IMG/VR virus record: IMGVR_UViG_3300047472_000155
Coordinates: 62,001 to 126,000 of that record
DNA length: 64,000 nt
Strand: one strand, 5' to 3'
Origin: a virus
The notes beneath the pieces were generated by a model, which had not been told where the DNA came from, made no database searches, and worked only from the letters and a program-made list of their open reading frames with translations. The position numbers were made by a program, and so were the translations under genes. Positions 20,514 to 34,559 of the stretch are shown one piece after another (the first letter of the stretch is position 1; every line of letters starts with the position of its first letter).

Positions 20514-21317
20514 ATGAAAAGTCAAATTGAATTGAAGAAAGTACTTAATGAAACGTTGGAAACTTACAAACATAATAAGAATGTTTTGGAAAATGTCAAA
20601 ACACTGATGCAGAATTTTGGAATATTTAGAGGTGAAACACAAAAGATATTTACAGGAAAGACACTTTTTGAGGACATGAACAAGAGAATACTCATATTGA
20701 TTACTGATTCATTGCATCGAAGTACAAATGTTCACAACCTCAATCCTTACGGATACTTTTCTGATAAGGAGATCAAGGAAGCAAAAGCTCAAGAAATTGT
20801 AATTGAAACTGAAACAAGTGAATTTCCCATCACAATACATAATGCTATCAAAAAAGCCGAAGACACTTTTATCGCATTTGTCAAGGCGAAAGACATTGTT
20901 GCTCTTTACAATTCCAATCTCTTAGGCTATAATTATAGAATAAGTAATCAATACAAGATGGTACAAAAAAACGGCAAGTTGATTCAGACAATTGATATCA
21001 ATACCAAAGATGTAAAAGACATTGCACAAAAGATACTAAATAACGTTTACAACATGAATACAATCATTTTAAATGTTTTAGTAAATTCAAGCTTCTCTAC
21101 CGGAAAAAATGAAATTGAATATTCAAATGACACATTGACAATCAATGAAAGTACTGTAGAAATTATTAGTGGACTTCATGATTTGAGCGCTCTTGCTTAC
21201 ATTCTTGAAGACAACAAGAATATTGAATTGAAGGTTGAACTAATGGTCAAACACTATAACTCAGAACAAATGATAAACTTTTACAATGAACTAAATATAA
21301 AGGGTGGTGTAAACTAA
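20514..21317 (+). CDS. Unknown protein upstream of recombinase-fold gene, 267 aa
   Basis: The ATG follows AAAGGAGATTGG. The product is soluble, helical in the first third, and rich in Asn/Lys/Ile, with no recognised motif. Its last base overlaps the next start, so it is co-translated with the recombinase-fold protein and probably works with it. Function unknown. Confidence 0.7.
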   Translation: MKSQIELKKVLNETLETYKHNKNVLENVKTLMQNFGIFRGETQKIFTGKTLFEDMNKRILILITDSLHRSTNVHNLNPYGYFSDKEIKEAKAQEIVIETETSEFPITIHNAIKKAEDTFIAFVKAKDIVALYNSNLLGYNYRISNQYKMVQKNGKLIQTIDINTKDVKDIAQKILNNVYNMNTIILNVLVNSSFSTGKNEIEYSNDTLTINESTVEIISGLHDLSALAYILEDNKNIELKVELMVKHYNSEQMINFYNELNIKGGVN

Positions 21318-22294
21318 TGGAAAAGCATGAACTCTACAATGAAGAAGTAAAAGAGGATTTCTTGTCACAGAAGCATTTTTCAGAAGGGACAAGAGTTGTC
21401 TATCGTAGAATCTTTGAAAAAAGCAGAGCCAATGAAGAAGTCCTGAACAAGGATTTGTATGACTTCACAAGACAAGAGATTGAAGAGGTTCTGCATGATC
21501 TTAATCCATTGACACCTCCAATATCTCAGTCCAATGGAAGAGTTATCAGCTCATACATTATTTGGTGGATAGACAAGAATAAGCTTAATAAAATCAATCC
21601 ATTGGAGGCAGTTGGTGCCGAATGGTTTGATAGATTCGTAGATAAAACCAAGAAACTTTATTTTTCATATAAGGAAATCAAAAGAATTGTCGATCTATGC
21701 GAGAATGCTCAAGATGCTGTAATACTTCTATCATACTTTGAGGACATTGGTGGCAAAGATGGAAGTGAAATCAGAAATTTAAAAATCACTGATTTAGATG
21801 AAGACCTTAACACAGTAATTTTACGTGAAAAAGGTAAGACTCCAAGAGTACATGTTATCAGTGATGAATTGAAAAAGCTTATCATCTCAGCATCCAAACA
21901 AAAGACTTACATCAAAAAGGATGGTAAGATGATTGAAATTGATAACATTCGTCCAGACATTGACTTGGTTGAAAACGAATATGTTGTCAGAAATTCTTTG
22001 ACACGCACAGATTCATTGAATTCACCAGTTCATTCGTCAGTAATTTATCGTAGAATGAAGACGTTGAGTGAGTCGTTTGGCTTTCCTTACTTGACAGGTA
22101 AAAATGTGTTGAGATCAGGAATAATCTACTTTGCCTGGAAACTTCTGCAACAAGAAGGAGCACTTGGTAAAGAACAATATGAAAAAATTGCAGAAAAATT
22201 TAGATTGAAAAACTGGTATACACTAAAGGATTTTTGCAACTATGAAACCATTGAGAAGTTATACGGTGAAGTTGCTGCTACAATAAGTGCATAA
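21317..22294 (+). CDS. Tyrosine-recombinase-fold protein, catalytic residues eroded
   Basis: 325 aa. The N-terminal 105 residues resemble a core-binding (SAM-like) domain. From about 110 the catalytic-domain layout is recognisable: ILLSYFEDIGGKDGSEIRNL where an integrase has the first Arg, ILREKGKTPRVHVI for the beta-hairpin Lys/Arg, LRSGIIYFAWKL for box II, and NWYTLKDF near the end. The first Arg appears to be replaced and the box II His is absent, so strand exchange is doubtful. The SPbeta master repressor MrpR (YopR) is, as I recall, a tyrosine-recombinase-fold protein of similar length that binds dispersed operators. A repressor role here is inference. Followed by a terminator. Confidence 0.7.
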   Translation: MEKHELYNEEVKEDFLSQKHFSEGTRVVYRRIFEKSRANEEVLNKDLYDFTRQEIEEVLHDLNPLTPPISQSNGRVISSYIIWWIDKNKLNKINPLEAVGAEWFDRFVDKTKKLYFSYKEIKRIVDLCENAQDAVILLSYFEDIGGKDGSEIRNLKITDLDEDLNTVILREKGKTPRVHVISDELKKLIISASKQKTYIKKDGKMIEIDNIRPDIDLVENEYVVRNSLTRTDSLNSPVHSSVIYRRMKTLSESFGFPYLTGKNVLRSGIIYFAWKLLQQEGALGKEQYEKIAEKFRLKNWYTLKDFCNYETIEKLYGEVAATISA

Positions 22295-23478: not shown

Positions 23479-24327
23479 ATGAATGAAGATTTTGTTAAAG
23501 ATTTTATTGCTTGCAATCAAGAAGTGACTTTACAAAAAGACGATACGGTTGATGATAAATTTGTTGACAAAATGTTAAATGTAAAAGCATATGTAGTGAA
23601 TGAAATGGCTACAGGAGATTTTGAAAAATTGGTGGACATCTTATTTAAAGAAGATATAAGTCCATTGTCATTAAATGATTCATATTTTGCTTCTTATAAG
23701 ATGTCAAAATTGGGGTACGGAAATTTCGGAAATGTTTATGAATTTGTTGGAAGTGATGGATACAGTTATGCAGTAAAAATTGCACGATTTGAAAAAGATA
23801 ATTACAGTGAACATGATGCAACTATTTTGTCAAAATTGCAGTCCATTAAAGGATACAATAAATTATTCTGTTACTTTGAAGGAACCTGCACATATGACTC
23901 ATGGGGAAATGTAAGAAAAAGAGATTTCCTTATAATGGTATCGAAAAAAGTGTATGGGTTTAGAATATCTGATGCCTTGAGAAATGAATTTTGCAAAAGA
24001 AACTTCTTTGACAACATTGGACCAGAAGTGATACAAGAGTTTCAAAAAACAATAAAAGAAACTTATTTAAATGGATATTTTCCAGATGATATTCATAGCG
24101 AAAATGTAATGGTGGATATGGATGAAAAGCAGGTTGTGATTGTTGATGTGGGATGCTATACACAGACAGAAGTAAAAGACGATATTTCAGAAGAAATGGT
24201 AAAAGATAAGGTATATGCATCAAGATTAATTGATCTGTGCGGACAATCAAATATTTTTTGTCGAGATGGTCAAAAATATCATGTGGAGGTGAAAACTAAA
24301 AATGACAGAGAAACTTATAAGTTTTAA
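23479..24327 (+). CDS. Eukaryote-like protein kinase, copy 1
   Basis: 282 aa. The ATG follows GAGGAGG. Kinase motifs in order: glycine loop LGYGNFGNVYEFVG (about 78), invariant Lys in YAVKIARF (about 100), catalytic loop PDDIHSENVMVD (about 202-213) and VDVG in place of DFG (about 222). The catalytic Asp, the Asn and the metal-binding Asp all appear present, so activity is plausible. The first 70 residues match the N-terminus of copy 2 (GDFEKLVDIL). The kinase lobe is short. It might act on host proteins or on a small molecule, as aminoglycoside-kinase relatives do. Confidence 0.8.
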   Translation: MNEDFVKDFIACNQEVTLQKDDTVDDKFVDKMLNVKAYVVNEMATGDFEKLVDILFKEDISPLSLNDSYFASYKMSKLGYGNFGNVYEFVGSDGYSYAVKIARFEKDNYSEHDATILSKLQSIKGYNKLFCYFEGTCTYDSWGNVRKRDFLIMVSKKVYGFRISDALRNEFCKRNFFDNIGPEVIQEFQKTIKETYLNGYFPDDIHSENVMVDMDEKQVVIVDVGCYTQTEVKDDISEEMVKDKVYASRLIDLCGQSNIFCRDGQKYHVEVKTKNDRETYKF

Positions 24328-25003
24328 AGTTACTACTCTCAATGGAATGGCGGATGGCGATTTTCAAAGATTACTTGCAATATTAATTGATGAAAAAGAA
24401 GGCATAACTTTCCACTCTCAGCATTGGGACATGGAACAAAGAGGATTAAAGCGTCTTGGTTTTGGTTGCTATGGTGATGTATATGAATTTATCGGAAGTA
24501 ATGGATATGAATATGCTGTTAAAATTTGTTCTTTTAAAAATAGTGCTCTTCAACACGATGGTGAAATTCTATCAAAACTTCAAGGAATTGTTGGATTTCC
24601 AAAACTATTCCTATATATTGATGGTGAATCCGAGACATCAGATTTCATGATAATGGTGTCACAGAAAATAAATGGTTTCACTATAGCAAAAATAGTTAAT
24701 CCTTGGAACGCTGATAAAATTTTGGTTCAACAATTCAAGGATACATTTGAGCCAGAAATTTTGAAGATATTTAATCAAACAATTCGTTCCTCATTCGCAA
24801 GAGGTTTACGTCCTGACGATGTTCATATTGAGAATGTAATGTATGATATCAACGAAAAAATCTTCTATGTTGTTGATGTAGGGAAATTTACAAATACAAA
24901 ATTCACAGAAGTTAGAGACAATGATATTTCAAGTTATAGAAATAACGCTAGAATCAGTGATCTTTTGCATATGGTAAATTATAAAAAAGAGGTGCTTGCA
25001 TAA
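24302..25003 (+). CDS. Eukaryote-like protein kinase, copy 2
   Basis: 233 aa. It overlaps copy 1 by 26 nt with its own GTGGAGGTG site. It repeats the plan: GDFQRLLAIL, LGFGCYGDVYEF (about 51), YAVKICSF (about 74), RPDDVHIENVMYD (about 169) and VVDVG (about 190). All core catalytic residues are visible. The two proteins are clear tandem duplicates that have diverged outside the motifs, suggesting different targets or a pair acting together. Confidence 0.8.
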   Translation: MTEKLISFKVTTLNGMADGDFQRLLAILIDEKEGITFHSQHWDMEQRGLKRLGFGCYGDVYEFIGSNGYEYAVKICSFKNSALQHDGEILSKLQGIVGFPKLFLYIDGESETSDFMIMVSQKINGFTIAKIVNPWNADKILVQQFKDTFEPEILKIFNQTIRSSFARGLRPDDVHIENVMYDINEKIFYVVDVGKFTNTKFTEVRDNDISSYRNNARISDLLHMVNYKKEVLA

Positions 25004-25356: not shown

Positions 25357-25387
25357 TTGACTTTTTTACAAATGTAATATAAAATGA
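25357..25387 (+). promoter_or_regulatory. Promoter whose -10 lies in a motif copy
   Basis: TTGACT (25357-25362), then 17 bp, then TAAAAT (25380-25385), which is the core of TAATATAAAATGA (25375-25387). The 130 nt before it hold no gene. Confidence 0.55.
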
Positions 25388-25421
25388 ATATATAACAAAC
25401 GAGAGGAAAGTGAACCGATCA

Positions 25422-25868
25422 ATGAATATCAAACAACAAGTCAAGGAAAATATTGTAAAGGCAATGAAGGAGAAGAATACTAAGCAACGCGACTTTCAAC
25501 GTATGTTGATGGATCGAATTCAGAAAAAAGAAAAGGAATTTCAGCGTGACATTACGGATGATGAAATTGTTGTATTGTTCCGCACATTCAAAAAGCAAAT
25601 TGAAGAAGAAGCATTTGCATATTTCCAATCTGGAAATGTAGTTAGACATGATGAATTGGTTCAAGATATCTCAGTGTTGTTTGCATATCTTCCACGTGAA
25701 ATGAGTGGAGAAGAGATTAAACATCTTGCGTCCACGGTTGTTAGCCAACTTGAAGGTCAAGGCGTATCTCCAAACAAGGGAAATGTCATGAAGTTGATCA
25801 TGCCTATGGTCAAGGGTAAGGCTGACAATAAACTCGTCATGGATATTGTGAATAGCATTTTTGCCTAA
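25422..25868 (+). CDS. YqeY/GatB-like domain protein
   Basis: 148 aa from ATG 25422. A GTG at 25410 is closer to GAGAGG and also possible. It matches the YqeY family: VKENIVKAMKEKN, RDFQRMLMDRI, LFAYLPREMSGEEI, and KGNVMKLIMPMVKGKAD with D, I and V to the end. YqeY is related to the tail domain of GatB, which contacts tRNA in the amidotransferase. The role of free YqeY is not established. A phage copy next to NAD and tRNA-repair genes is suggestive. Confidence 0.85.
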   Translation: MNIKQQVKENIVKAMKEKNTKQRDFQRMLMDRIQKKEKEFQRDITDDEIVVLFRTFKKQIEEEAFAYFQSGNVVRHDELVQDISVLFAYLPREMSGEEIKHLASTVVSQLEGQGVSPNKGNVMKLIMPMVKGKADNKLVMDIVNSIFA

Positions 25869-25879
25869 ATAATTTCAAC

Positions 25880-25997
25880 ACGACAGGTTACAAAAGTTTT
25901 GCTGAACTAATATATAATTATAACTCTGTTAAATTATTAAGTAAATTAACAGAATCAGTTAATATATTAGTTCAGCGAAAAAAGCGTAACCTGTCGT
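25880..25997. repeat. 118-nt nested inverted repeat upstream of pnuC
   Basis: Outer stem ACGACAGGTTAC (25880-25891) with its exact complement (25986-25997). Symmetric 9 x 9 internal loop. Middle stem GCTGAACTAATATAT (25901-25915) with its exact complement (25962-25976). Inner stem TAACT-CTGTTAA (25921-25932) with TTAACAG (25946-25952) and AGTTA (25957-25961), a 4-nt bulge and a 13-nt loop. It ends 34 nt before the pnuC start, so as RNA it would sit in the pnuC leader. No T-run follows closely. Confidence 0.9.
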
Positions 25998-26030
25998 AAA
26001 AACAAAACAATAATATTGGAGGAATTAACC

Positions 26031-26825
26031 ATGAAACTTAACAAAATACATGTGATTATTGCAAGTATTTTATTCTTCATCATTGGATATTTTACATCAT
26101 CTTCGGTGATTGAAATTGTTTCTGCCGTTTCCGGTTTGCTTTGTGTGTGGCTTGCCGCCAAAGAACACATATGGAATTATCCAATTGGATTCGTCAACAT
26201 AGCGGCGTTCATGTATGTGTTTTGGGGAGCTGGACTATATGCCGACTTTACACTACAAATTATCTTTGCGGCATTGAGCGCTTACGGATGGATATATTGG
26301 CTTAAAGGCAAAGGTGAAAAATCGGTTAAGCCAACAAAACGTGTAACGACTTCAGAAATTATTTTATACATTGTGATTGCAATTGTAGGAACATTCTTGT
26401 GGGCAAATGTCAATCTCAGAATTTTTAATGGTGTTGCATTGCCATACTTTGATGCATTCGTTGCTGTGTTAAGTGTAATTGCTCAAGTAATGTTGTCAAG
26501 AAAGCGGCTTGAGAATTGGTATGTATGGATTCTAGTAGATGTGTTATCCGTAGGAATGTATTGGTACAAAGACTTACACCTTGTATCTATCTTATATATC
26601 TTCTTCCTTGTCAATGCGGTATATGGATTGATTGCATGGAAAAAAGAATACAAAAAGTTTCAAGTTGAACAAACGGTAAATAAAATAATCAAAGAGACTC
26701 AAGCAAGTTCAGAAAATATCGGAAATGCTATGAAAACTCCGTGGCTTAAGTTTGTAGAAGAACATCAAAGAGCTTACTATACTACAGATGATCCAGAAAA
26801 TCCATTCAATAAAGGGGATAAGTGA
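26031..26825 (+). CDS. pnuC: Nicotinamide riboside transporter PnuC
   Basis: 264 aa from ATG 26031 behind TTGGAGGAA. PnuC imports nicotinamide riboside through the cytoplasmic membrane by facilitated diffusion, trapped by later phosphorylation. Seven or so hydrophobic segments are visible from residue 4 to about 205. Family landmarks include WNYPIGFVNIAAFMYVFW, YGWIYW and RRLENWYVWILVDVLSV-like KRLENWYVWILVDV. The last 55 residues are a soluble tail. The downstream NadR-like enzyme completes the pathway to NAD+. Confidence 0.92.
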   Translation: MKLNKIHVIIASILFFIIGYFTSSSVIEIVSAVSGLLCVWLAAKEHIWNYPIGFVNIAAFMYVFWGAGLYADFTLQIIFAALSAYGWIYWLKGKGEKSVKPTKRVTTSEIILYIVIAIVGTFLWANVNLRIFNGVALPYFDAFVAVLSVIAQVMLSRKRLENWYVWILVDVLSVGMYWYKDLHLVSILYIFFLVNAVYGLIAWKKEYKKFQVEQTVNKIIKETQASSENIGNAMKTPWLKFVEEHQRAYYTTDDPENPFNKGDK

Positions 26826-26827
26826 TA

Positions 26828-27064
26828 ATGGGAGAAATTATATTCAAAACTTATTCCCTTGGAGAAATCGTTGACAACTTAGGTGAAAATGAAATTGCTA
26901 TAAAAATTGACGGAACTAGTGTGGGGGATAGAATTTATAAGAACAATGAGACATGTCAGCTTAGACGAGTGAATATAGATTCTTGTATGGATATTCCATT
27001 GATGATTAATACTATTGAAGTTTTGGAAAAAAGTGTTTGGATCATTTTGAAGGAGGAATCCTAA
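26828..27064 (+). CDS. Unknown small protein between pnuC and nadR, 78 aa
   Basis: ATG 26828 follows GGGGATAAG, and the stop overlaps the next ATG (TAATG). The product is acidic with mixed strands. By coupling it belongs to the NAD salvage unit. I do not recognise a family. Confidence 0.65.
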   Translation: MGEIIFKTYSLGEIVDNLGENEIAIKIDGTSVGDRIYKNNETCQLRRVNIDSCMDIPLMINTIEVLEKSVWIILKEES

Positions 27065-28104
27065 TGAAGACAGGTTTAATTCTAGGCAAATTCATGCCTT
27101 TACATCTAGGGCATGAATACCTTATCAATACAGGACTAACAGCATGTGATGTGCTTCATGTTGTTGTATGTAGCCTATCAAGTGAACCGATTGATGGAAA
27201 TTTGCGTTACGAGTGGGTTAAACATAGATTTTGTCAAGAAATTTTGAAGGGACGCATTGTTGTTCATCACCTCAAAGAAGATTGGATGCCACAAGAACCA
27301 AGTGATTGCATCTCTGAGGAAGCTTTCTTTGGATGTTGGGCGGGTGTAATGGAGTCTTTGTGTAATACTAAGTTTGACGTTATGTTCGCATCAGAAATGT
27401 ATATACATCGTATGTCAAATCAACTTAATTGCACTCCTATTCTTGTTGACCTTGAGCGTAAGAATGTTCCTATTAGTGGAACAATGGTTCGTGACAATCC
27501 AATTGGAAATTGGAAGTTTATTAACAGGAATGTAAAAAAGTATTTTGCAAAGCGTGTACTCATTATTGGCGGTGAAAGCACCGGAAAGTCAATTATGACT
27601 CAAATGCTTGACGAATATTACGAAGACAAAGGTTATCTTACTTATGGTTCTCAAGAATATGCTAGAGATTATATTGACCAAGTTTATAATGGTAATATGG
27701 AAAAGTTAACATTTGACGACATCACACATTTTGGTCAATCACAAATGAGAGATGTTGATAGCGCTATACAAAGTGGATTCCAAATTGTATTTTCTGACAC
27801 GGACGCTATTGTGTCTAAGGTATTTCAACAAACATACTACGGAAAGACATCTCCTGAACTTGATGAAGTCATTGACAAAGAACAATGGGATTTGGTTCTA
27901 TTCCTTGAAAACGATGTACCATGGGTTGATGATGGTCAACGTAATCTTGGAGAGAAGAAGCAAAGAGAATTATTCCAACATAAACTCTACGTTGAAGTAT
28001 ATAACAAAAAGAAAATGCGTAATATCGTGTTTATTAACGGAGATTGGGAACAACGATTTGAAAAGGCAAAAAAATCTGTTGACAAGTTGCTTCAACTAAT
28101 GTAA
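27064..28104 (+). CDS. nadR: NadR-like NMN adenylyltransferase / ribosylnicotinamide kinase
   Basis: 346 aa. ATG 27064 follows GGAGGA. The N-terminal domain has the nucleotidyltransferase motif GKFMPLHLGH (8-17) and ISGTMVRDNP (about 135) and should join NMN and ATP to NAD+. The C-terminal domain has the P-loop GGESTGKS (about 169-176) and should phosphorylate nicotinamide riboside to NMN. The N-terminal repressor domain of enterobacterial NadR is absent, so this is a pure enzyme. With PnuC it gives a two-step route from imported riboside to NAD+. Phage homologues are known, for example in KVP40. Confidence 0.93.
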   Translation: MKTGLILGKFMPLHLGHEYLINTGLTACDVLHVVVCSLSSEPIDGNLRYEWVKHRFCQEILKGRIVVHHLKEDWMPQEPSDCISEEAFFGCWAGVMESLCNTKFDVMFASEMYIHRMSNQLNCTPILVDLERKNVPISGTMVRDNPIGNWKFINRNVKKYFAKRVLIIGGESTGKSIMTQMLDEYYEDKGYLTYGSQEYARDYIDQVYNGNMEKLTFDDITHFGQSQMRDVDSAIQSGFQIVFSDTDAIVSKVFQQTYYGKTSPELDEVIDKEQWDLVLFLENDVPWVDDGQRNLGEKKQRELFQHKLYVEVYNKKKMRNIVFINGDWEQRFEKAKKSVDKLLQLM

Positions 28105-28116
28105 GATAAAATGAAA
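28098..28116 (+). promoter_or_regulatory. AATGTAAGATAAAATGAAA motif, solo copy
   Basis: A full-length copy overlapping the last codons of nadR, ahead of the gene at 28140. No -35 is visible. Confidence 0.6.
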
Positions 28117-28139
28117 GAGCGAAAGGAATTGATGACTAT

Positions 28140-28484
28140 ATGAGTAAGAATGGCGATATTAAAATTGCTGGAGATGAAAGACACAAAGTTCCAAACTCAG
28201 AAGTAAGAGGATATATTAATCAATTAAAAAAAGATGAAAAGAAAAATTATTCTAGAAGCTTAGAATTGTTGAATGCGCAAATTTCTACATCTTCTGACGT
28301 ATTTGTCAGCATGTTGTTTTCATCTGTAGTCGGACTTATTGCAACACACTTCTACCCTCAATTTAACAGTGGAGGCTATTGGATTGCATTGTTTCTAAGC
28401 ACAGGTTTTTTAAATTCATTGAAACTTAACTATAAAAAAGTAATTAGAGATGACTATACCCCTAGTTGGAAAAAGGAGAAATAA
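28140..28484 (+). CDS. Two-pass membrane protein, 114 aa
   Basis: The ATG follows AAAGGAATTG. A charged N-terminal half of about 55 residues precedes two membrane helices (FVSMLFSSVVGLIATHF and YWIALFLSTGFLNSL). No family recognised. It lies between NAD salvage and the ACP-like gene. Confidence 0.65.
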   Translation: MSKNGDIKIAGDERHKVPNSEVRGYINQLKKDEKKNYSRSLELLNAQISTSSDVFVSMLFSSVVGLIATHFYPQFNSGGYWIALFLSTGFLNSLKLNYKKVIRDDYTPSWKKEK

Positions 28485-28485
28485 T

Positions 28486-28731
28486 ATGACAACATTGACA
28501 GTACAACAAAAGGTAAAAAGCGTAATTGGAAAAATTAAAGGGATTCCATCAAAAGAGATTAGTATCAAAGATTCATTTGAAGACCTTGAATTTGATGGAT
28601 TTGATATGGATGAAATGATTGAAGTTCTTTCGGATTATTATGACATTGATCTTGAAGTTGAATTTAATTATGTAAAACATACACATGTAGGGCATGTCGT
28701 TAAGTTGGTAGAGAAGCTTTTTAATTGGTAG
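28486..28731 (+). CDS. Acyl-carrier-protein-like, serine replaced
   Basis: 81 aa from ATG 28486, with AAAGGAG before it. It has the acyl carrier fold pattern: VIGKIKGIPSKEISIKDSF, FDGFDMDEMIEVL and YDIDL. In true carriers a DSL motif holds the phosphopantetheine serine. Here the position reads DGF (Gly38), so it cannot be charged in the usual way. It may be a structural or regulatory mimic. Identification by pattern; fairly sure of the fold. Confidence 0.75.
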   Translation: MTTLTVQQKVKSVIGKIKGIPSKEISIKDSFEDLEFDGFDMDEMIEVLSDYYDIDLEVEFNYVKHTHVGHVVKLVEKLFNW

Positions 28732-28733
28732 AA

Positions 28734-28755
28734 ACAAATATAAAATAAAACGAAA
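28734..28755 (+). promoter_or_regulatory. ACAAATATAAAAT motif, solo copy
   Basis: A copy reading ACAAATATAAAATAAAACG and two further bases, directly after the ACP-like gene and before the next ribosome site. Confidence 0.55.
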
Positions 28756-28766
28756 GTGGTGGTAAT

Positions 28767-29021
28767 ATGCTTTGGTTAATAACAATCTGGGTTGTTTCAA
28801 TAATTTTATGTTTTTTCATTGGAAAAAAATCTTTATCTATTAATGACGATATGTTTGACGAAGAATTAGAAAATTTAATAATTTTTATTGTAGTTGGATT
28901 GATTCCATGCCTAAATTTGATCATATATTTAATAGTTCTTACATGTGTTTATTGCGAAGAAAGAGATTCAGGGATAAGTGATCTTGCAAAAGTGATCTTT
29001 CATGCAAAGAATGATAAGTGA
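28767..29021 (+). CDS. Two-pass membrane protein, 84 aa
   Basis: The ATG follows AAGTGGTGG. Two hydrophobic helices (LWLITIWVVSIILCFFIG and LIIFIVVGLIPCLNLIIYLI) surround an acidic loop. Function unknown. Confidence 0.65.
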   Translation: MLWLITIWVVSIILCFFIGKKSLSINDDMFDEELENLIIFIVVGLIPCLNLIIYLIVLTCVYCEERDSGISDLAKVIFHAKNDK

Positions 29022-29077
29022 TGGCATTGGTAATATGTGGTTTGGAAATGAGAAATGGTCAATAAGGAGGAATGAAA

Positions 29078-30205
29078 GTGTTAAATTTTACAAAAGAAGA
29101 TTACATGGAATATGTTGATCAAGGATATATCTCGCGTAAAGAACATCCAGAAGACTCAAATGTAGTTATTTTAAATTATACAGAAAAAACCGTATTTGAA
29201 CGCAAATGGAATGACATAACACTTCAATGCAGAGGTTTGATCTTGAATGAAGCGACATGTGAAGTGTTGGCAAGACCTTTCCCTAAGTTTTTTAATTATG
29301 GTGAAGCGAATGGTCTTAACATTTCTATTCCACAAACACAGCCAGAGATTACCATTAAGCATGACGGATCATTGGGAATCATGTATCGTCTACATGGTAA
29401 AATTCGATGGGCGACAAGGGGTAGTTTTGTGTCAGAACAGGCTAATATTGCACAAAGAATTTGGGATAAAGAATACGCCCAATATGAGCATTTAATTCCG
29501 AATTCCTTAACATTGTTGGCAGAAATAATTCACCCATTGACAAGAGTGGTTGTTAATTACAATGGACTTGAAGATTTGATTTTGATTGGCATTATTAATA
29601 GATTTGATGGATCAGATTACAATCATCTTACTATTACCAATTTTAGAAATCAATATGTTCCAATGCCAGTAACAGAAAAGATAGTGGGTAACGTTGATAA
29701 TATTATAGAAATCGCAAAAACCCTTGATCACAATGAAGAGGGGTTTGTATTGTGTTGGGACAATCCCAATTTTACATTTGACGAACAACAACCGTATCGC
29801 CTTAAGGTCAAGGGACAACAATACCTTGAAGTTCACCGTATCATTCATGGTATGAGCTTGAAGCAAAAAGTTGAGTCGTGGGCTAATGGCAACTTGAATG
29901 AATATATTGCATCATTACCAGAAGAGTTTCGTCCAGAGATCGAAGAAACTGCTTCCGAATGTGAGAATATTTATAGTTATATTATGATAAATGTAGCAAA
30001 AAAGTATCAAATAGCAGAAAAACGTGGACGCAAGAATTATGCTCTATGGATGCAAAAGAATGCTCCTAGCTATCTTCATGGTTTTTTATGGCTCAAATAT
30101 GATAATGAAATTGAACAAATGCAAGATAAAATTAAACAATATATTGTCAAAAATTATAGAGAATTGATTGGAGGAAATAACAGTGCAAGTGAGCAAATTG
30201 AATAA
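29078..30205 (+). CDS. T4 Rnl1-like RNA ligase
   Basis: 375 aa. GTG 29078 is about 8 nt after AAGGAGG. ATG 29072 is too close. It joins 3'-OH and 5'-phosphate RNA ends through enzyme-AMP and RNA-adenylate steps, classically to reseal nicked tRNA anticodon loops. Motif I is KHDGS with Lys94 as AMP acceptor. Further motifs are LLAEIIHP (IIIa), EEGFVLCW (IV) and RLKVKGQQYL (V). The length equals that of T4 Rnl1. It overlaps the kinase gene by 23 nt, so end healing and sealing are translationally coupled. Confidence 0.9.
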   Translation: MLNFTKEDYMEYVDQGYISRKEHPEDSNVVILNYTEKTVFERKWNDITLQCRGLILNEATCEVLARPFPKFFNYGEANGLNISIPQTQPEITIKHDGSLGIMYRLHGKIRWATRGSFVSEQANIAQRIWDKEYAQYEHLIPNSLTLLAEIIHPLTRVVVNYNGLEDLILIGIINRFDGSDYNHLTITNFRNQYVPMPVTEKIVGNVDNIIEIAKTLDHNEEGFVLCWDNPNFTFDEQQPYRLKVKGQQYLEVHRIIHGMSLKQKVESWANGNLNEYIASLPEEFRPEIEETASECENIYSYIMINVAKKYQIAEKRGRKNYALWMQKNAPSYLHGFLWLKYDNEIEQMQDKIKQYIVKNYRELIGGNNSASEQIE

Positions 30206-31229
30206 ACTTATAATCTTGGTTGGTATTCCTGGAAGTGGCAAAAGTACTAAGGCAAAAGAGATTTTGGATGAAAATCAAAATACAGTTTTAATTTCCTCAG
30301 ATGCAATTAGAGAAGAGTTGGGTGATGTAAATGATCAATCCAAGAACGATAAAGTTTTTGAGTTGTATTATAAACGTGCCGAAGAATCTCTTAAAGAAGG
30401 TAAAGATGTCATTCTTGATGCAACTAACACAACCGTAAAGTCAAGACGTATTGCAGTTGAACGATTGAAGAAACATGTAACAACCATTGAAGCTCATTAC
30501 TTCAATGTAGATTATTGGACTTCTTGGGGAAGAAATTGTAAAAGAGATAGATTCGTCCCAGAACATGTTATCGAAAGAATGTATAAATCTCTTCAAATTC
30601 CCACTTATGCAGAGGGATTTGATCAAATTGTATTTCACAATGAAAAAGAAAAAATGGATGAAAACAAGATAGTAACCTATAGTCGTAGTGGAATGATTTT
30701 CATATCTAGTTTGAAGGAACTTGAGGATTTCATTTCTTTGAATCAAAAATATGAGCGCATTATGGGAGAGCAGAAATATTTTGCACATGACTTACATGAT
30801 ATTTGGGAACTTCCACAAGATAATTCATTTCATTCTTTCAGCGTAAGTAGACATACTTATCATGTATGGAAATATATTCTTGAAAATTACAATGGGGAAG
30901 ATAAGATTGCCATGCTGTGGTCAGGATTGTTTCATGATGTTGGTAAAGCATTTTGCAAAAACTTCAAAAAATATGAAGATGGAACCGTATCACGATACGC
31001 TAACTTCATTGGACATGAGAATGTTTCTGCGCAACTTGCAGCAACACGTTTAAGTCAATACTATGATACAGAATTTGTGTTGAAGGTAGTTGAGATTATT
31101 CAATATCATATGCGTTTGATGCAAGTAGGGGATAGTGAAAAATCCATTAACAAATTGCAAAAATTTGTTGGCGTTGAGTTGATGAATAAACTTGAATTTT
31201 TCTATGAAGCAGATACGAGTGCAAAATAA
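30183..31229 (+). CDS. Polynucleotide kinase fused to HD phosphohydrolase
   Basis: 348 aa. GTG 30183 follows TTGGAGGAAATA. The N-terminal half is a P-loop 5'-kinase: LVGIPGSGKST (P-loop 14-22), SSDAIREELGD, DATNTTVKSRR and an Arg-rich lid. The C-terminal half has HD residues: SRHTYHVW, LFHDVGKAF and GHE. The known HD-Pnk enzymes have the opposite domain order and heal RNA ends by removing 2',3'-cyclic phosphate and adding 5'-phosphate. Here HD replaces the HAD phosphatase of T4 Pnkp. It should prepare cut RNA for the ligase upstream. Confidence 0.87.
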   Translation: MQVSKLNKLIILVGIPGSGKSTKAKEILDENQNTVLISSDAIREELGDVNDQSKNDKVFELYYKRAEESLKEGKDVILDATNTTVKSRRIAVERLKKHVTTIEAHYFNVDYWTSWGRNCKRDRFVPEHVIERMYKSLQIPTYAEGFDQIVFHNEKEKMDENKIVTYSRSGMIFISSLKELEDFISLNQKYERIMGEQKYFAHDLHDIWELPQDNSFHSFSVSRHTYHVWKYILENYNGEDKIAMLWSGLFHDVGKAFCKNFKKYEDGTVSRYANFIGHENVSAQLAATRLSQYYDTEFVLKVVEIIQYHMRLMQVGDSEKSINKLQKFVGVELMNKLEFFYEADTSAK

Positions 31230-31247
31230 AAGGGAGATGAATATATA

Positions 31248-32135
31248 ATGTTCAAAAATATTAAGAGATATGATAGTTCAGAAGGCGTAGTTTGGAAGTA
31301 TGTCTTTGAAAAAGAAGATGCCGTAACAGAAGCAGTTCTTTATAAGTACAATACTTTTGAAGATAGAACAGTGGTATGTTGTTCTGTCCAGTCAGGATGT
31401 CCTATCGGATGTACATTTTGTGGTACTGGAAATAAGTTTATTAGAAATTTAACTCCAGATGAAATTGTAGCTCAAGTAACACATGTATTTAGTGATATGG
31501 ATATCAAGGACATAAATAGTAGATGTAAAAAATTGCAAATTATGTTCATGAGCATGGGTGAACCTATGACAAATTGGAAGAATGTCGAAGAAGCAATTTC
31601 ACAATTAAATAACCTTTATCCTAACGCTCAATTACTTATCTCTACTATCGGAGTAGATAATGATGCAATTTTCTCTAAAATAATTCAAACGTCAAAAAGA
31701 ATATCAAAAGTTGGACTTCAATTCTCTATTCATCAAGCTTTTGATACTGATAGAGATAATCTCATTCCATTTAAAAATAAAATGTCACTTAGAAAAATAA
31801 GAGACGCAGGAACAATTTGGAGCCAAGAAACAGGACGAAAAGTGTATTTAAATTATTGTGTTGATGGAAAGAATGTTTCCAAAGAACACTTAGACAGATT
31901 AAAAGACTTGTTCAGTCCTACAACTTTTAATTTTACATTTAGCGTTGTGTGTAGCGCAGATGAAACAATGAAAGATTCTGGATATAGAAATCATGAAAAG
32001 ATTAAAGAAGTAATGAGTTCATTTTTAGAGGATGGATACAATGTAAGAATGTTTGATCCTGCGGGACAAGATGATATTGGTGGTGGATGTGGTCAGTTGT
32101 GGTATGTTCAACAATGGATGAATGAATATAAATAA
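31248..32135 (+). CDS. RlmN/Cfr-like radical SAM RNA methyltransferase
   Basis: 295 aa. The ATG follows AAAGGGAGATG. The iron-sulfur motif is CPIGCTFC (Cys51, 55, 58). FMSMGEPMTN binds SAM. Cys44 lies seven residues before the cluster and Cys281 (GGGCGQL) near the end, matching the two mechanistic cysteines of RlmN. Family members make 2- or 8-methyladenosine in 23S rRNA and, for RlmN, in tRNA position 37. The N-terminal domain of about 90 residues is missing, so substrate recognition must differ. Placed among tRNA-repair enzymes, tRNA is the likelier substrate. Confidence 0.88.
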   Translation: MFKNIKRYDSSEGVVWKYVFEKEDAVTEAVLYKYNTFEDRTVVCCSVQSGCPIGCTFCGTGNKFIRNLTPDEIVAQVTHVFSDMDIKDINSRCKKLQIMFMSMGEPMTNWKNVEEAISQLNNLYPNAQLLISTIGVDNDAIFSKIIQTSKRISKVGLQFSIHQAFDTDRDNLIPFKNKMSLRKIRDAGTIWSQETGRKVYLNYCVDGKNVSKEHLDRLKDLFSPTTFNFTFSVVCSADETMKDSGYRNHEKIKEVMSSFLEDGYNVRMFDPAGQDDIGGGCGQLWYVQQWMNEYK

Positions 32136-32154
32136 AAAAGGAGATGAAATAAAT

Positions 32155-33063
32155 ATGACACAGAAAAAGTTTACAGATGTGGTACGCATGGGTCATAAGA
32201 CAACACAAGGAGTATTTCATATTGATGATCCAATTACGATAACAGAGAAGATTGATGGTGCAAACGCAAGCTTTAAACGTGAAGGCGACAAGGTTCTTGC
32301 ATTCTCTCGTAACAATCATCTTGATGAATCAAGTGATCTTGGCGGATTCTATCAATGGGTTCAAGCTAATATTGACCCTACAAAGCTTTTGGAAGGAGTC
32401 ATTATGTTTGGAGAGTGGCTTAATCCTCACAAGGTTAAATATGCACCTGAACACACTAAAACATTCATCTTGTTTGCTATCTTCAATGAGTTTACACAAG
32501 AATATGTTAGTTTTTCTATGGTTAAAGATGAGGCAAGACGATTGAATCTCAAGCTTGTCCCTGTGTTTTATGAAGGTGTATATCAATCTTATGAACATCT
32601 TCAATCATTTGTAGGAAAAACTGAACTTGGTGGGACTCTTGGCGGCGAAACCACAGGTGAAGGAATTGTAGTAGTTAACTATGACTATAAAGATAGATAT
32701 GGTGATCAAGTTTTCACAAAGATGGTTGTTGATAAATTTGCTGAGGTTCAACATCAAAAATCTCCACGCGATCCCAATACCCCTGAAACTATTGAGGCTC
32801 TTTGGGTAAAAGATAATATGACAAAAGCCCGTATAGAAAAACTCTTGCTTAAATTAGTAGATGAAGGTATAATTGAAGAAGAGTTTGGCATTGAAGACAT
32901 GGGAACTATTCTTAAGAATATCAATCGGCGCTTGATTGATGATATGATTAAGGAAGAGGTTGACTATTTACCAGAAGGATATGAACTCAAAGAAATTGGT
33001 CGCGCTGTTGCTGGCAAATCTCCTAATATTATTAAGGAGATTATTAAAGAAAGACAAATGTAA
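32155..33063 (+). CDS. Rnl2-type RNA ligase
   Basis: 302 aa from ATG 32155 behind AAAGGAGATG. Motif I EKIDGANASF puts AMP on Lys32. RNNHLDE (Ia), MFGEWLNP (III), GEGIVVVNY (IV) and TKMVVDKFAE (V) follow. This is the RNA_ligase family of T4 Rnl2, which seals nicks in duplex RNA. The last 90 residues are helical, as in the Rnl2 C-terminal domain. Two ligases of different type in one cluster suggest that different breaks are repaired. Confidence 0.9.
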   Translation: MTQKKFTDVVRMGHKTTQGVFHIDDPITITEKIDGANASFKREGDKVLAFSRNNHLDESSDLGGFYQWVQANIDPTKLLEGVIMFGEWLNPHKVKYAPEHTKTFILFAIFNEFTQEYVSFSMVKDEARRLNLKLVPVFYEGVYQSYEHLQSFVGKTELGGTLGGETTGEGIVVVNYDYKDRYGDQVFTKMVVDKFAEVQHQKSPRDPNTPETIEALWVKDNMTKARIEKLLLKLVDEGIIEEEFGIEDMGTILKNINRRLIDDMIKEEVDYLPEGYELKEIGRAVAGKSPNIIKEIIKERQM

Positions 33064-33073
33064 TATAAAATGA
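33054..33073 (+). promoter_or_regulatory. ACAAATGTAATATAAAATGA motif
   Basis: It overlaps the last two codons and stop of the Rnl2-type gene and precedes the ribosome site of 33089. Confidence 0.6.
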
Positions 33074-33088
33074 TTGGAGGAATTTATA

Positions 33089-33310
33089 ATGGCAAAAGAA
33101 GTCGGAATTGGATTGACAACAAAGACAGTTTTGCATTTCTTAAACATACAAGACGATAGAGATGTGACTTTGATTACAAATGAGGTTAGTGTCAAAGATG
33201 TTTTGAAGATCATGATAGAAAATGACTTGCCTGTAAATTGTCTTATTAATAAGAAAATTAGACAGGTTAGAGATGGAATTTTTACAATAACAGCAATAAC
33301 CTTTGAATAA
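33089..33310 (+). CDS. Unknown small protein in RNA-repair cluster, 73 aa
   Basis: ATG 33089 follows TTGGAGGAA. Small alpha/beta composition (LHFLNIQDDRDVTLI, VLKIMIENDLPVN). Not recognised. It is co-directional between an RNA ligase and the CCA-adding enzyme. Confidence 0.65.
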   Translation: MAKEVGIGLTTKTVLHFLNIQDDRDVTLITNEVSVKDVLKIMIENDLPVNCLINKKIRQVRDGIFTITAITFE

Positions 33311-33326
33311 AATAGGAGGAATGAAT

Positions 33327-34559
33327 ATGATTCATATTAATATCCCCAAAAAAGTCAATCACATTATGGATGTAATTGGCGACTATAGTCATTCAGTGTA
33401 TGTCGTAGGAGGATGCATAAGAGATTCAATCTTAGGCATCACTCCTAAAGATTGGGACATTGCCACAAGTATGCGTCCAGAAATCGTAATAGCGGCTTTC
33501 AATAACCTTGGATATACCGTTGTCCCTACCGGATTGAAGCATGGAACAGTGACAATCGTAATTGATGGAGAACATTTTGAGGTTACAACATATCGCAAAG
33601 ATGGAGTATACTCAGATGGTCGAAGACCAGATGATGTTGTGTTTACACATGACATTAACGAGGACTTGTCACGAAGAGACTTTACTATTAATGCTATGGC
33701 ATACAATGAAGATGGATTAATTGATCCATTCAATGGCTACCATGATCTTCAAGCTAAATTCATTAGAGCGGTTGGTAATCCATCAGAAAGATTCAAGGAA
33801 GATGGGTTACGTATGTTACGTGCAATTCGTTTTTCGTCAACACTTGGATTTCATATTGCTCCTAGCACATATCGTGCTATTTGCGAAAAATATCGTTTAC
33901 TAAAGGATATTTCTGTTGAGCGTAAACGCGAAGAATTATATAAAATCTTGCTTTCCGACAATGCTCATTATGGAATTAGACATCTCATTAACACAGGATT
34001 AATGGATTATATCATTCATGAAATTAGTGATATGACTTTTCCTAAATTGGATGAGATTCCACAATATTATGGCTTGCGTTTAGCTTATTTGTTACTTGAT
34101 TTCCATGAAGATAAGGTAAGAGAGATTTTGAATAAATTGAAAGTTGACAATGAAACAAAACGTTTAGTGATAAATGGAATCAATGCTTATGATCAAATTG
34201 ACGATAAGCTAAAATTAACAAGATCAGATATGAAGATGATTATTCGCGTTTATGGATCACACGAATTGTGGGGTGCGTTATTGATTGCCAAAACAATACA
34301 TGAAAGTAAACATGGTAGATATAATGAAATGATGCGTCAATTTCTTAATATCATGGAAAACAATAAGAATGGGAAAGAACCTATTTGGATTAAGGATTTA
34401 GATGTCAAAGGCAATGACTTGATTGATCTTGGCTTTGAAGGTAAGCAAATAGGAGAAATGCTAAATCGTATTCTTGATTTTGTGACAATTCATCCTATAG
34501 AAAACGATAAAAGTAAATTAGTTCAACAAATTGAAGGAGGATATTTTAATTATGTATAA
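33327..34559 (+). CDS. cca: CCA-adding tRNA nucleotidyltransferase (class II)
   Basis: 410 aa. ATG 33327 is 8 nt after AGGAGGA. It adds or repairs the 3' CCA of tRNA using CTP and ATP. Motifs: VVGGCIRDSILG with DWD (28-44, metal-binding Asp42 and Asp44), ISRRDFTINAMA-like LSRRDFTINAMAY (about 115), DPFNGYHDL, then ERFKEDGLRMLRAIRFS (EDxxR templating region). Full length for the bacterial family. EDxxR suits a true CCA enzyme better than a poly(A) polymerase, though the two can be hard to separate. Confidence 0.9.
   Translation: MIHINIPKKVNHIMDVIGDYSHSVYVVGGCIRDSILGITPKDWDIATSMRPEIVIAAFNNLGYTVVPTGLKHGTVTIVIDGEHFEVTTYRKDGVYSDGRRPDDVVFTHDINEDLSRRDFTINAMAYNEDGLIDPFNGYHDLQAKFIRAVGNPSERFKEDGLRMLRAIRFSSTLGFHIAPSTYRAICEKYRLLKDISVERKREELYKILLSDNAHYGIRHLINTGLMDYIIHEISDMTFPKLDEIPQYYGLRLAYLLLDFHEDKVREILNKLKVDNETKRLVINGINAYDQIDDKLKLTRSDMKMIIRVYGSHELWGALLIAKTIHESKHGRYNEMMRQFLNIMENNKNGKEPIWIKDLDVKGNDLIDLGFEGKQIGEMLNRILDFVTIHPIENDKSKLVQQIEGGYFNYV

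What the first reader, a model, noticed from the sequence alone, without database searches (positions are those of the whole stretch)
25880..34559. NAD resynthesis and RNA repair joined in one candidate counter-defence island
PnuC and a NadR-like bifunctional enzyme can rebuild NAD+ from imported riboside. Directly downstream, co-directional and mostly closely spaced, are an Rnl1-type ligase, a kinase-HD end-healing enzyme, an RlmN-like methyltransferase, an Rnl2-type ligase and a CCA-adding enzyme. Each family is known. Both functions answer host immunity that kills by NAD depletion or by tRNA cutting. The combination with an ACP-like protein, a YqeY-like protein and a structured leader looks like one programme. 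That reading is inference.
Basis: partly seen in the sequence, partly recalled or inferred. Interest (0 to 1): 0.88.

Follow-up and report, generated by a model that had tools for sequence, protein, structure and literature searches.

The report
Phage NAD salvage and RNA repair
A large temperate phage of Bacillus-type bacteria carries, in one tight row, genes to rebuild the coenzyme NAD and genes to mend broken tRNA; every enzyme is of a known kind, and relatives show two modules that sometimes sit together rather than one fixed programme.

Summary
Co-directional genes at 25,410-34,559 encode YqeY-like, PnuC, NadR, Rnl1, Pnk-HD, RlmN-like, Rnl2 and CCA-adding proteins, with gaps from -38 to 50 nt from PnuC to CCA. 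The leader is real: a long hairpin (z -12) with compensatory changes in the one close relative and a second copy elsewhere in both genomes. The 'ACP' lacks its attachment serine.

'One programme' is only partly supported. The close relative G001 keeps the whole row except RlmN. In wider relatives the halves separate: FADO has Rnl1-PnkHD-Rnl2-YqeY without NadR or CCA; G007 and G008 carry NadR-PnuC at least 40 kb from the repair genes; LysYB1 has NadR-PnuC without Rnl1. NadR lies within 10 kb of an Rnl1-type ligase in 5 of 12 records holding both (1.3 expected), so the pairing recurs but is optional. The phage also encodes NAMPT-NMNAT (NARP2-like) 51 kb away, which fits NAD-depleting immunity more directly, and 22 tRNAs, 20 without an encoded CCA.

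Both functions were already proposed as phage counter-defence (PMC7824862, PMC9503650). What is new is the combination and the hairpin. No function was tested.

The parts
25357..25385 (+). candidate promoter of the unit (TTGACT-17-TAAAAT) upstream of yqeY
   Evidence: 10 of 12 consensus matches; hexamers and surroundings conserved in L007. Promoter-like sites as a class are at chance level in this region.
25410..25868 (+). YqeY-like protein (GatB/YqeY; phrog_1460)
   Evidence: PF09424 E 1e-22; also in the clusters of L007 and the FADO group
25880..25997 (+). long hairpin (leader of pnuC): outer stem CGACAGGTTAC/GTAACCTGTCG, asymmetric internal loop, inner stem GCTGAACTAATATA/TATATTAGTTCAGC, variable tip
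   Evidence: z -12.1; 25-pair model paired in 99% of cells over four copies, two pairs with double compensatory changes and one pair lost on both sides together; second copy in the same genome at G000:48478-48616
26031..26825 (+). PnuC nicotinamide riboside transporter
   Evidence: PF04973 E 1e-53, TIGR01528 above cut-off
26822..27064 (+). small protein of unknown family, coupled to pnuC and nadR
   Evidence: overlapping start and stop codons; no family
27064..28104 (+). NadR-like NMN adenylyltransferase / ribosylnicotinamide kinase
   Evidence: phrog_3462 E 5e-80; motifs intact; solved NadR relatives
28140..28484 (+). unknown protein, 114 aa, kept in the close relative
   Evidence: 69% identity in L007
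28486..28731 (+). ACP-like fold without the phosphopantetheine serine
   Evidence: PF00550 barely above cut-off; serine absent in both phages
28767..29021 (+). small hydrophobic protein of unknown function
   Evidence: ORF; 33% identity in L007
29072..30205 (+). Rnl1 (T4 RNA ligase 1 type), KxDG motif K96-D98-G99
   Evidence: profile match to T4 Rnl1 including its C-terminal part; motif invariant in 28 homologues
30168..31229 (+). Pnk-HD: N-terminal 5' polynucleotide kinase, C-terminal HD phosphoesterase
   Evidence: AlphaFold model pLDDT 86, kinase matches C. thermocellum Pnkp; HD matches that of a poly(A) polymerase / CCA-type enzyme
31248..32135 (+). RlmN/Cfr-like radical SAM methyltransferase without the N-terminal domain
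   Evidence: TIGR00048 E 7e-35, positions 74-342; CxxxCxxC and both catalytic Cys present; absent from G001, where a GIY-YIG homing endonuclease sits
32155..33063 (+). Rnl2-type RNA ligase
   Evidence: PF09414 E 2e-23; phrog_548 E 4e-61
33089..33310 (+). small protein of unknown function kept in the relative
   Evidence: 62% identity in L007
33327..34559 (+). CCA-adding enzyme
   Evidence: PF01743 E 5e-37, PF12627, PF13735

Best explanation
The stretch is one co-transcribed accessory unit of a large temperate phage (SPbeta-type MrpR repressor) of Bacillaceae, made from two older modules. The first, PnuC-NadR, imports nicotinamide riboside, phosphorylates it to NMN and adenylylates NMN to NAD+. 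The second is a tRNA-type repair set: Pnk phosphorylates 5'-OH ends, its HD domain clears 2',3'-cyclic or 3'-phosphate ends, Rnl1 seals anticodon-loop breaks, Rnl2 seals nicks in duplex RNA, and the CCA enzyme restores or completes tRNA 3' ends. The RlmN-like enzyme is a late addition, probably an RNA adenine methyltransferase. Together they keep NAD+ and working tRNAs available while host immunity or phage takeover drains them. Shown: families, catalytic motifs, order, spacing, conservation in one relative. Inferred: activities, substrates, co-expression and the counter-immunity role. The joining looks opportunistic, not obligatory.
For: Families and motifs. Tight co-directional spacing. Gene order kept in G001. 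Rnl1 and Pnk are neighbours in many Rnl1 loci, and PnuC lies next to NadR in nearly all NadR loci, so each half is a module of its own. Repair clusters without NAD genes in FADO, PJN02 and Bacillus/Metabacillus contigs L169-L170. NAD and repair genes neighbouring in a few other phages. Published proposals that phage NadR/NadV and Rnl/Pnk/CCA genes answer NAD depletion and tRNA cleavage (PMC9503650; PMC7824862).
Against: No expression or infection data. Nicotinamide riboside is not what TIR or SIR2 NADases release (nicotinamide plus ADP-ribose), so PnuC-NadR is a less direct answer than the phage's own NAMPT-NMNAT. Host CCA enzyme and host NAD synthesis could suffice. Several interspersed ORFs have no assigned role.
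Confidence: 0.55

Rival explanations
1. Two unrelated modules became neighbours by phage mosaicism; each answers its own threat or need, and their adjacency carries no functional meaning.
For: Halves separate in FADO, G007, G008 and LysYB1; NadR within 10 kb of 1 of 80 Rnl1 loci; NAMPT within 10 kb of Rnl1 in only one of eight records holding both; homing endonuclease in place of RlmN in G001 shows a fluid locus.
Against: NadR-Rnl1 proximity in 5 of 12 records holding both, 1.27 expected, though the uniform-placement null is lenient and some records are related; a second contiguous case in the unrelated phage L067.
Confidence: 0.4
2. General takeover metabolism, not counter-defence: NAD+ for phage DNA synthesis, and RNA enzymes to mature and maintain the phage's own 22 tRNAs. 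The CCA enzyme finishes the 20 tRNA genes that encode no CCA.
For: 22 tRNAs, 17 of 20 amino acids, only Gln and Trp genes with a CCA end; no PADLOC defence assignment for the set.
Against: FADO (15 tRNAs, about 12 without CCA) and G007 (21, about 14 without) have no phage CCA enzyme, and G009 has the enzyme but only three tRNAs, all with CCA: presence of the enzyme does not track need. A kinase plus HD phosphoesterase plus Rnl1 is not needed for ordinary maturation of intronless tRNAs.
Confidence: 0.3
3. The hairpin before pnuC is not a regulatory leader of the NAD genes but a shared RNA-processing/stability hairpin of the upstream genes, or a DNA site for a recombinase or other DNA-binding protein.
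For: Second copy in both genomes lies 3' of a different gene and before a terminator, between convergent genes, one of them a tyrosine-recombinase-like gene; it folds equally well on both strands; no Rfam match; stop codon to element 8-13 nt in all four copies.
Against: Position directly before the pnuC ribosome-binding site in both phages leaves a role on pnuC possible; only four copies are known.
Confidence: 0.6

Closest known systems
Phage NAD+ salvage: PnuC-NadR (KVP40-, ICP1-, Herelleviridae-type) and NARP2 (NAMPT + NMNAT)
   Same: Same NadR and PnuC families, side by side in nearly all NadR loci; NadR relatives in 755 phage records
   Different: Nicotinamide riboside route in the island; the NAMPT-NMNAT route is 51 kb away in this genome. 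LysYB1, the nearest NadR relative in the phage collection, has no Rnl1 repair genes.
T4 Pnkp-Rnl1 tRNA repair
   Same: Kinase plus Rnl1 next to each other; Rnl1 matches T4 Rnl1 through its C-terminal part
   Different: End healing uses a C-terminal HD domain instead of the HAD phosphatase of T4 Pnkp
RNA repair cluster of FADO/PJN02-type Bacillus phages
   Same: Rnl1, Pnk-HD and Rnl2 in the same order, with YqeY nearby
   Different: No NadR-PnuC, no CCA enzyme (FADO), no RlmN; DNA ligase and ParA in between
Bacterial HD-Pnk end-healing enzyme (Runella type; from memory)
   Same: Kinase and HD phosphoesterase in one chain
   Different: Reversed order: here the kinase is N-terminal (phrog_6931 has its kinase at 182-339)
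RlmN / Cfr
   Same: Radical SAM motif and both catalytic cysteines
   Different: Lacks the N-terminal domain; far below the curated RlmN cut-off (120 against 290 bits)

Membership tests
NARP2 (NAMPT + NMNAT NAD+ reconstitution) | NAMPT and NMNAT genes together | tested here: not met
   Not in the island; NAMPT-NMNAT-Nudix lie at G000 ~142.0-144.7 kb, 51 kb away
PnuC-NadR salvage | PnuC transporter next to a NadR with both kinase and adenylyltransferase motifs | tested here: met
PnuC-NadR salvage | NAD+ made from nicotinamide riboside | not testable with these tools
   needs an enzyme assay
T4-type tRNA repair | Rnl1 ligase with KxDG motif and T4-like C-terminal region | tested here: met
T4-type tRNA repair | Pnkp with HAD 3'-phosphatase | tested here: not met
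   HD domain instead
T4-type tRNA repair | restores infection against anticodon nucleases | not testable with these tools
   needs phage genetics
RlmN | CxxxCxxC and two catalytic cysteines | tested here: met
RlmN | full-length protein with N-terminal domain, above curated score | tested here: not met
   starts at profile position 74; 120.5 against 290 bits
Acyl carrier protein | serine for 4'-phosphopantetheine | tested here: not met
   DGFDMDEM in both phages
CCA-adding enzyme | PolyA_pol head, RNA-binding and C-terminal domains | tested here: met
NAD+ or other known riboswitch | match to an Rfam family | tested here: not met
   none at gathering score; none credible with permissive search
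One conserved NAD + RNA repair island | linkage kept in relatives | tested here: inconclusive
   kept in G001; recurs in a few others; broken in FADO, G007, G008, LysYB1

The most novel reading that the evidence does not exclude
NAD resynthesis and tRNA repair were joined more than once, independently (window/G001 lineage; L067; possibly G011, G012, FBKp34), because one immune event can require both, making this a selected two-arm anti-immunity operon; its hairpin would be a new phage control element shared with a locus that holds a tyrosine-recombinase-like gene.
Probability: 0.22. Interest if true: 0.65.

Novelty: new variant of a known kind. Interest (0 to 1): 0.45.

Why it matters
If the two arms are used together, the locus would be a ready test bed for whether phages meet NAD-depleting and tRNA-cutting immunity with one coordinated response. 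Even if they are not, it adds a temperate Bacillaceae lineage with two NAD salvage routes, a large tRNA set and a multi-enzyme RNA repair set, and an unexplained conserved hairpin. Comparing relatives shows which links deserve experiments: PnuC-NadR and Rnl1-Pnk are conserved pairs, the bridge between them is not.

Tried and rejected
Nucleotide search of the island in the phage collection: no match. NAD riboswitch for the leader: no credible Rfam match even with permissive limits, and the second copy has no gene behind it. CCA enzyme explained only by CCA-less phage tRNAs: rejected as sufficient, because presence of the enzyme does not track need in FADO, G007 and G009. Island as a phage-borne defence system: no convincing PADLOC hit; weak Cas3-HD hits come from the HD domain. 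General NAMPT-Rnl1 linkage: not enriched (one of eight records within 10 kb). The hairpin in other phages: none in 15 further records with the RNA model, and the exact outer motif occurs in IMG/VR only in G001. The element's resemblance to folded single-strand recombination sites (attC-like layout) is recalled from memory and was not tested.

Full report
What was checked. The window is positions 62,001-126,000 of a 166,838-base viral record. It has no nucleotide relative in the phage collection. Its best protein relatives are phages and contigs of Bacillus and related bacteria, and it carries an SPbeta-type MrpR repressor-like gene at 21,317-22,294, so a temperate Bacillaceae phage is the likely source (inference).

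The genes. NadR has the adenylyltransferase and kinase motifs. Rnl1 has the KxDG motif and matches T4 RNA ligase 1 from position 45 to 363. The kinase-HD protein has all HD-type residues invariant over 18 homologues; its predicted structure (pLDDT 86) matches the C. thermocellum Pnkp kinase, and its HD part matches the HD domain of a solved poly(A) polymerase / CCA-type enzyme by profile. The RlmN-like protein begins at RlmN position 74 but keeps the radical SAM motif and both catalytic cysteines. The CCA enzyme has all three expected domains. The ACP-like protein lacks the attachment serine in both phages, so it cannot act as a classical carrier. From pnuC to cca the gaps are -38 to 50 nt, which fits one transcript; a candidate promoter precedes yqeY and is conserved in the relative.

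Linkage in relatives. The close relative G001 (L007; 170,562 bases) keeps the row at 68-86% identity for the main enzymes, but a GIY-YIG homing endonuclease sits where RlmN is in the window. In FADO and PJN02 the cluster Rnl1, Pnk-HD, Rnl2, YqeY exists without neighbouring NadR; FADO has no NadR and no CCA enzyme anywhere. In G007 and G008 NadR-PnuC and Rnl1 coexist 52 kb and about 40-119 kb apart, depending on whether the map is circular. LysYB1 has NadR-PnuC but no Rnl1. Among the loci collected, PnuC sits next to NadR in nearly all NadR loci, and Rnl1 next to a Pnk in many Rnl1 loci, whereas NadR lies within 10 kb of only one of 80 Rnl1 loci, the close relative.

Chance test. In 12 records that hold both NadR and an Rnl1-type ligase, 5 have them within 10 kb on the same strand; uniform placement predicts 1.27 (P about 0.005; 4 of 11 and P about 0.02 without the window lineage). 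This null is lenient, some records are related, and G007 was included because it was already known to hold both genes. L067 (G013) is the clearest independent case: PRPP synthetase, NAMPT, PnuC, NadR, Rnl1, HNH and Pnk-HAD in a row. For NAMPT and Rnl1 there is no enrichment: one of eight records within 10 kb. The short RlmN-like gene neighbours a Pnk-HD gene and PRPP synthetase-NAMPT in L009, and PRPP synthetase-NAMPT in L011.

What the genome says about function. Outside the window, at about 142.0-144.7 kb, the phage encodes NAMPT, an NMN adenylyltransferase-like protein and a Nudix protein. That pair would use the nicotinamide released by NADase immunity, so it is the more direct NARP2-like answer to NAD depletion; PnuC-NadR depends on imported nicotinamide riboside. 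The phage also has 22 tRNA genes, two with an encoded CCA end. This makes tRNA maturation a natural rival for the CCA enzyme, but in relatives presence of the enzyme does not follow need. A 29-base promoter-like repeat, TTGACAAATGAAAGATAAAATGGTATAAT, occurs about 24 times in the genome, including near the tRNA genes and before the NAMPT region, but not before the island, which suggests separate regulation.

The hairpin. Between yqeY and pnuC an element of about 118 bases folds at -52 kcal/mol (z -12.1; -13.6 in the relative). A second copy exists in each genome, 3' of a gene for a protein of unknown family and facing a tyrosine-recombinase-like gene. Across the four copies 99% of 98 pair cells are kept, against about 26-35% when the arms are slid; two pairs show double compensatory changes and one pair is lost on both sides together. 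The shuffle control is weak for four sequences (17 of 500 shuffles reach the observed covariation score). The outer stem and the internal loop are nearly invariant. Because the element folds on both strands and the second copy has no gene behind it, a pnuC-specific riboswitch is unlikely; an RNA processing or stability hairpin, or a protein-binding DNA site, is more likely. No other phage examined has it.

Literature. Phage NadR and NadV as answers to NAD depletion, and RNA ligases, kinases and CCA enzymes as answers to tRNA cleavage, were proposed by Iyer and colleagues (PMC7824862, PMC9503650). NARP1 and NARP2 are established counter-defence pathways (PMC12774641, PMC13232231, PMC12028318). 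The paper searches found no report of this particular combination in one row in a temperate Bacillus-type phage, but the library is partial.

Verdict. The interpretation as one programme is possible but not established: relatives show two robust modules with an optional bridge. All functional steps are inference from families.

Noticed in passing
G000:C1:48478-48616 (L018:8478-8616, minus strand): Second copy of the pnuC-leader hairpin, between the 3' end of a gene of unknown family (251 aa) and a convergent tyrosine-recombinase-like gene, followed by a terminator-like sequence; the orthologous copy exists in G001 at 29.4 kb. The two copies per genome lie in opposite orientation, 37-39 kb apart.
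   Followed up: yes
whole record; in the window 41248, 45151, 56009, 62595, 62873, 63627 (+): A 29-base promoter-like repeat TTGACAAATGAAAGATAAAATGGTATAAT with a conserved spacer occurs about 24 times; candidate early promoter/operator class, possibly the site of the MrpR-like repressor.
   Followed up: partly
G000:C1 about 142.0-144.7 kb (L020:16094-18763): NAMPT, NMN adenylyltransferase-like and Nudix genes in a row (NARP2-like), plus an HD_4 protein at L020:14425-15096 resembling alarmone hydrolases.
   Followed up: partly
G000:C1:28456-39171: 22 tRNA genes covering 17 amino acids, only two with an encoded CCA end.
   Followed up: yes
G000:C1:45073-46194 (L018:5073-6194): Tubulin/FtsZ-family gene resembling TubZ, suggesting plasmid-like partition in the prophage state.
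   Followed up: no
window 23479-25003: Two adjacent related genes, the first with a weak protein kinase match (PF00069 at its cut-off), kept in L007.
   Followed up: no
L009:8919-10891 and L011: The short RlmN-like gene sits next to Pnk-HD and PRPP synthetase-NAMPT genes in L009, and next to PRPP synthetase-NAMPT in L011; it may travel with NAD and RNA repair genes.
   Followed up: partly
L003:9001-10045 (Moorella phage MTATph1): The Rnl1 gene is split into two frames in this record (frameshift or sequencing error).
   Followed up: no
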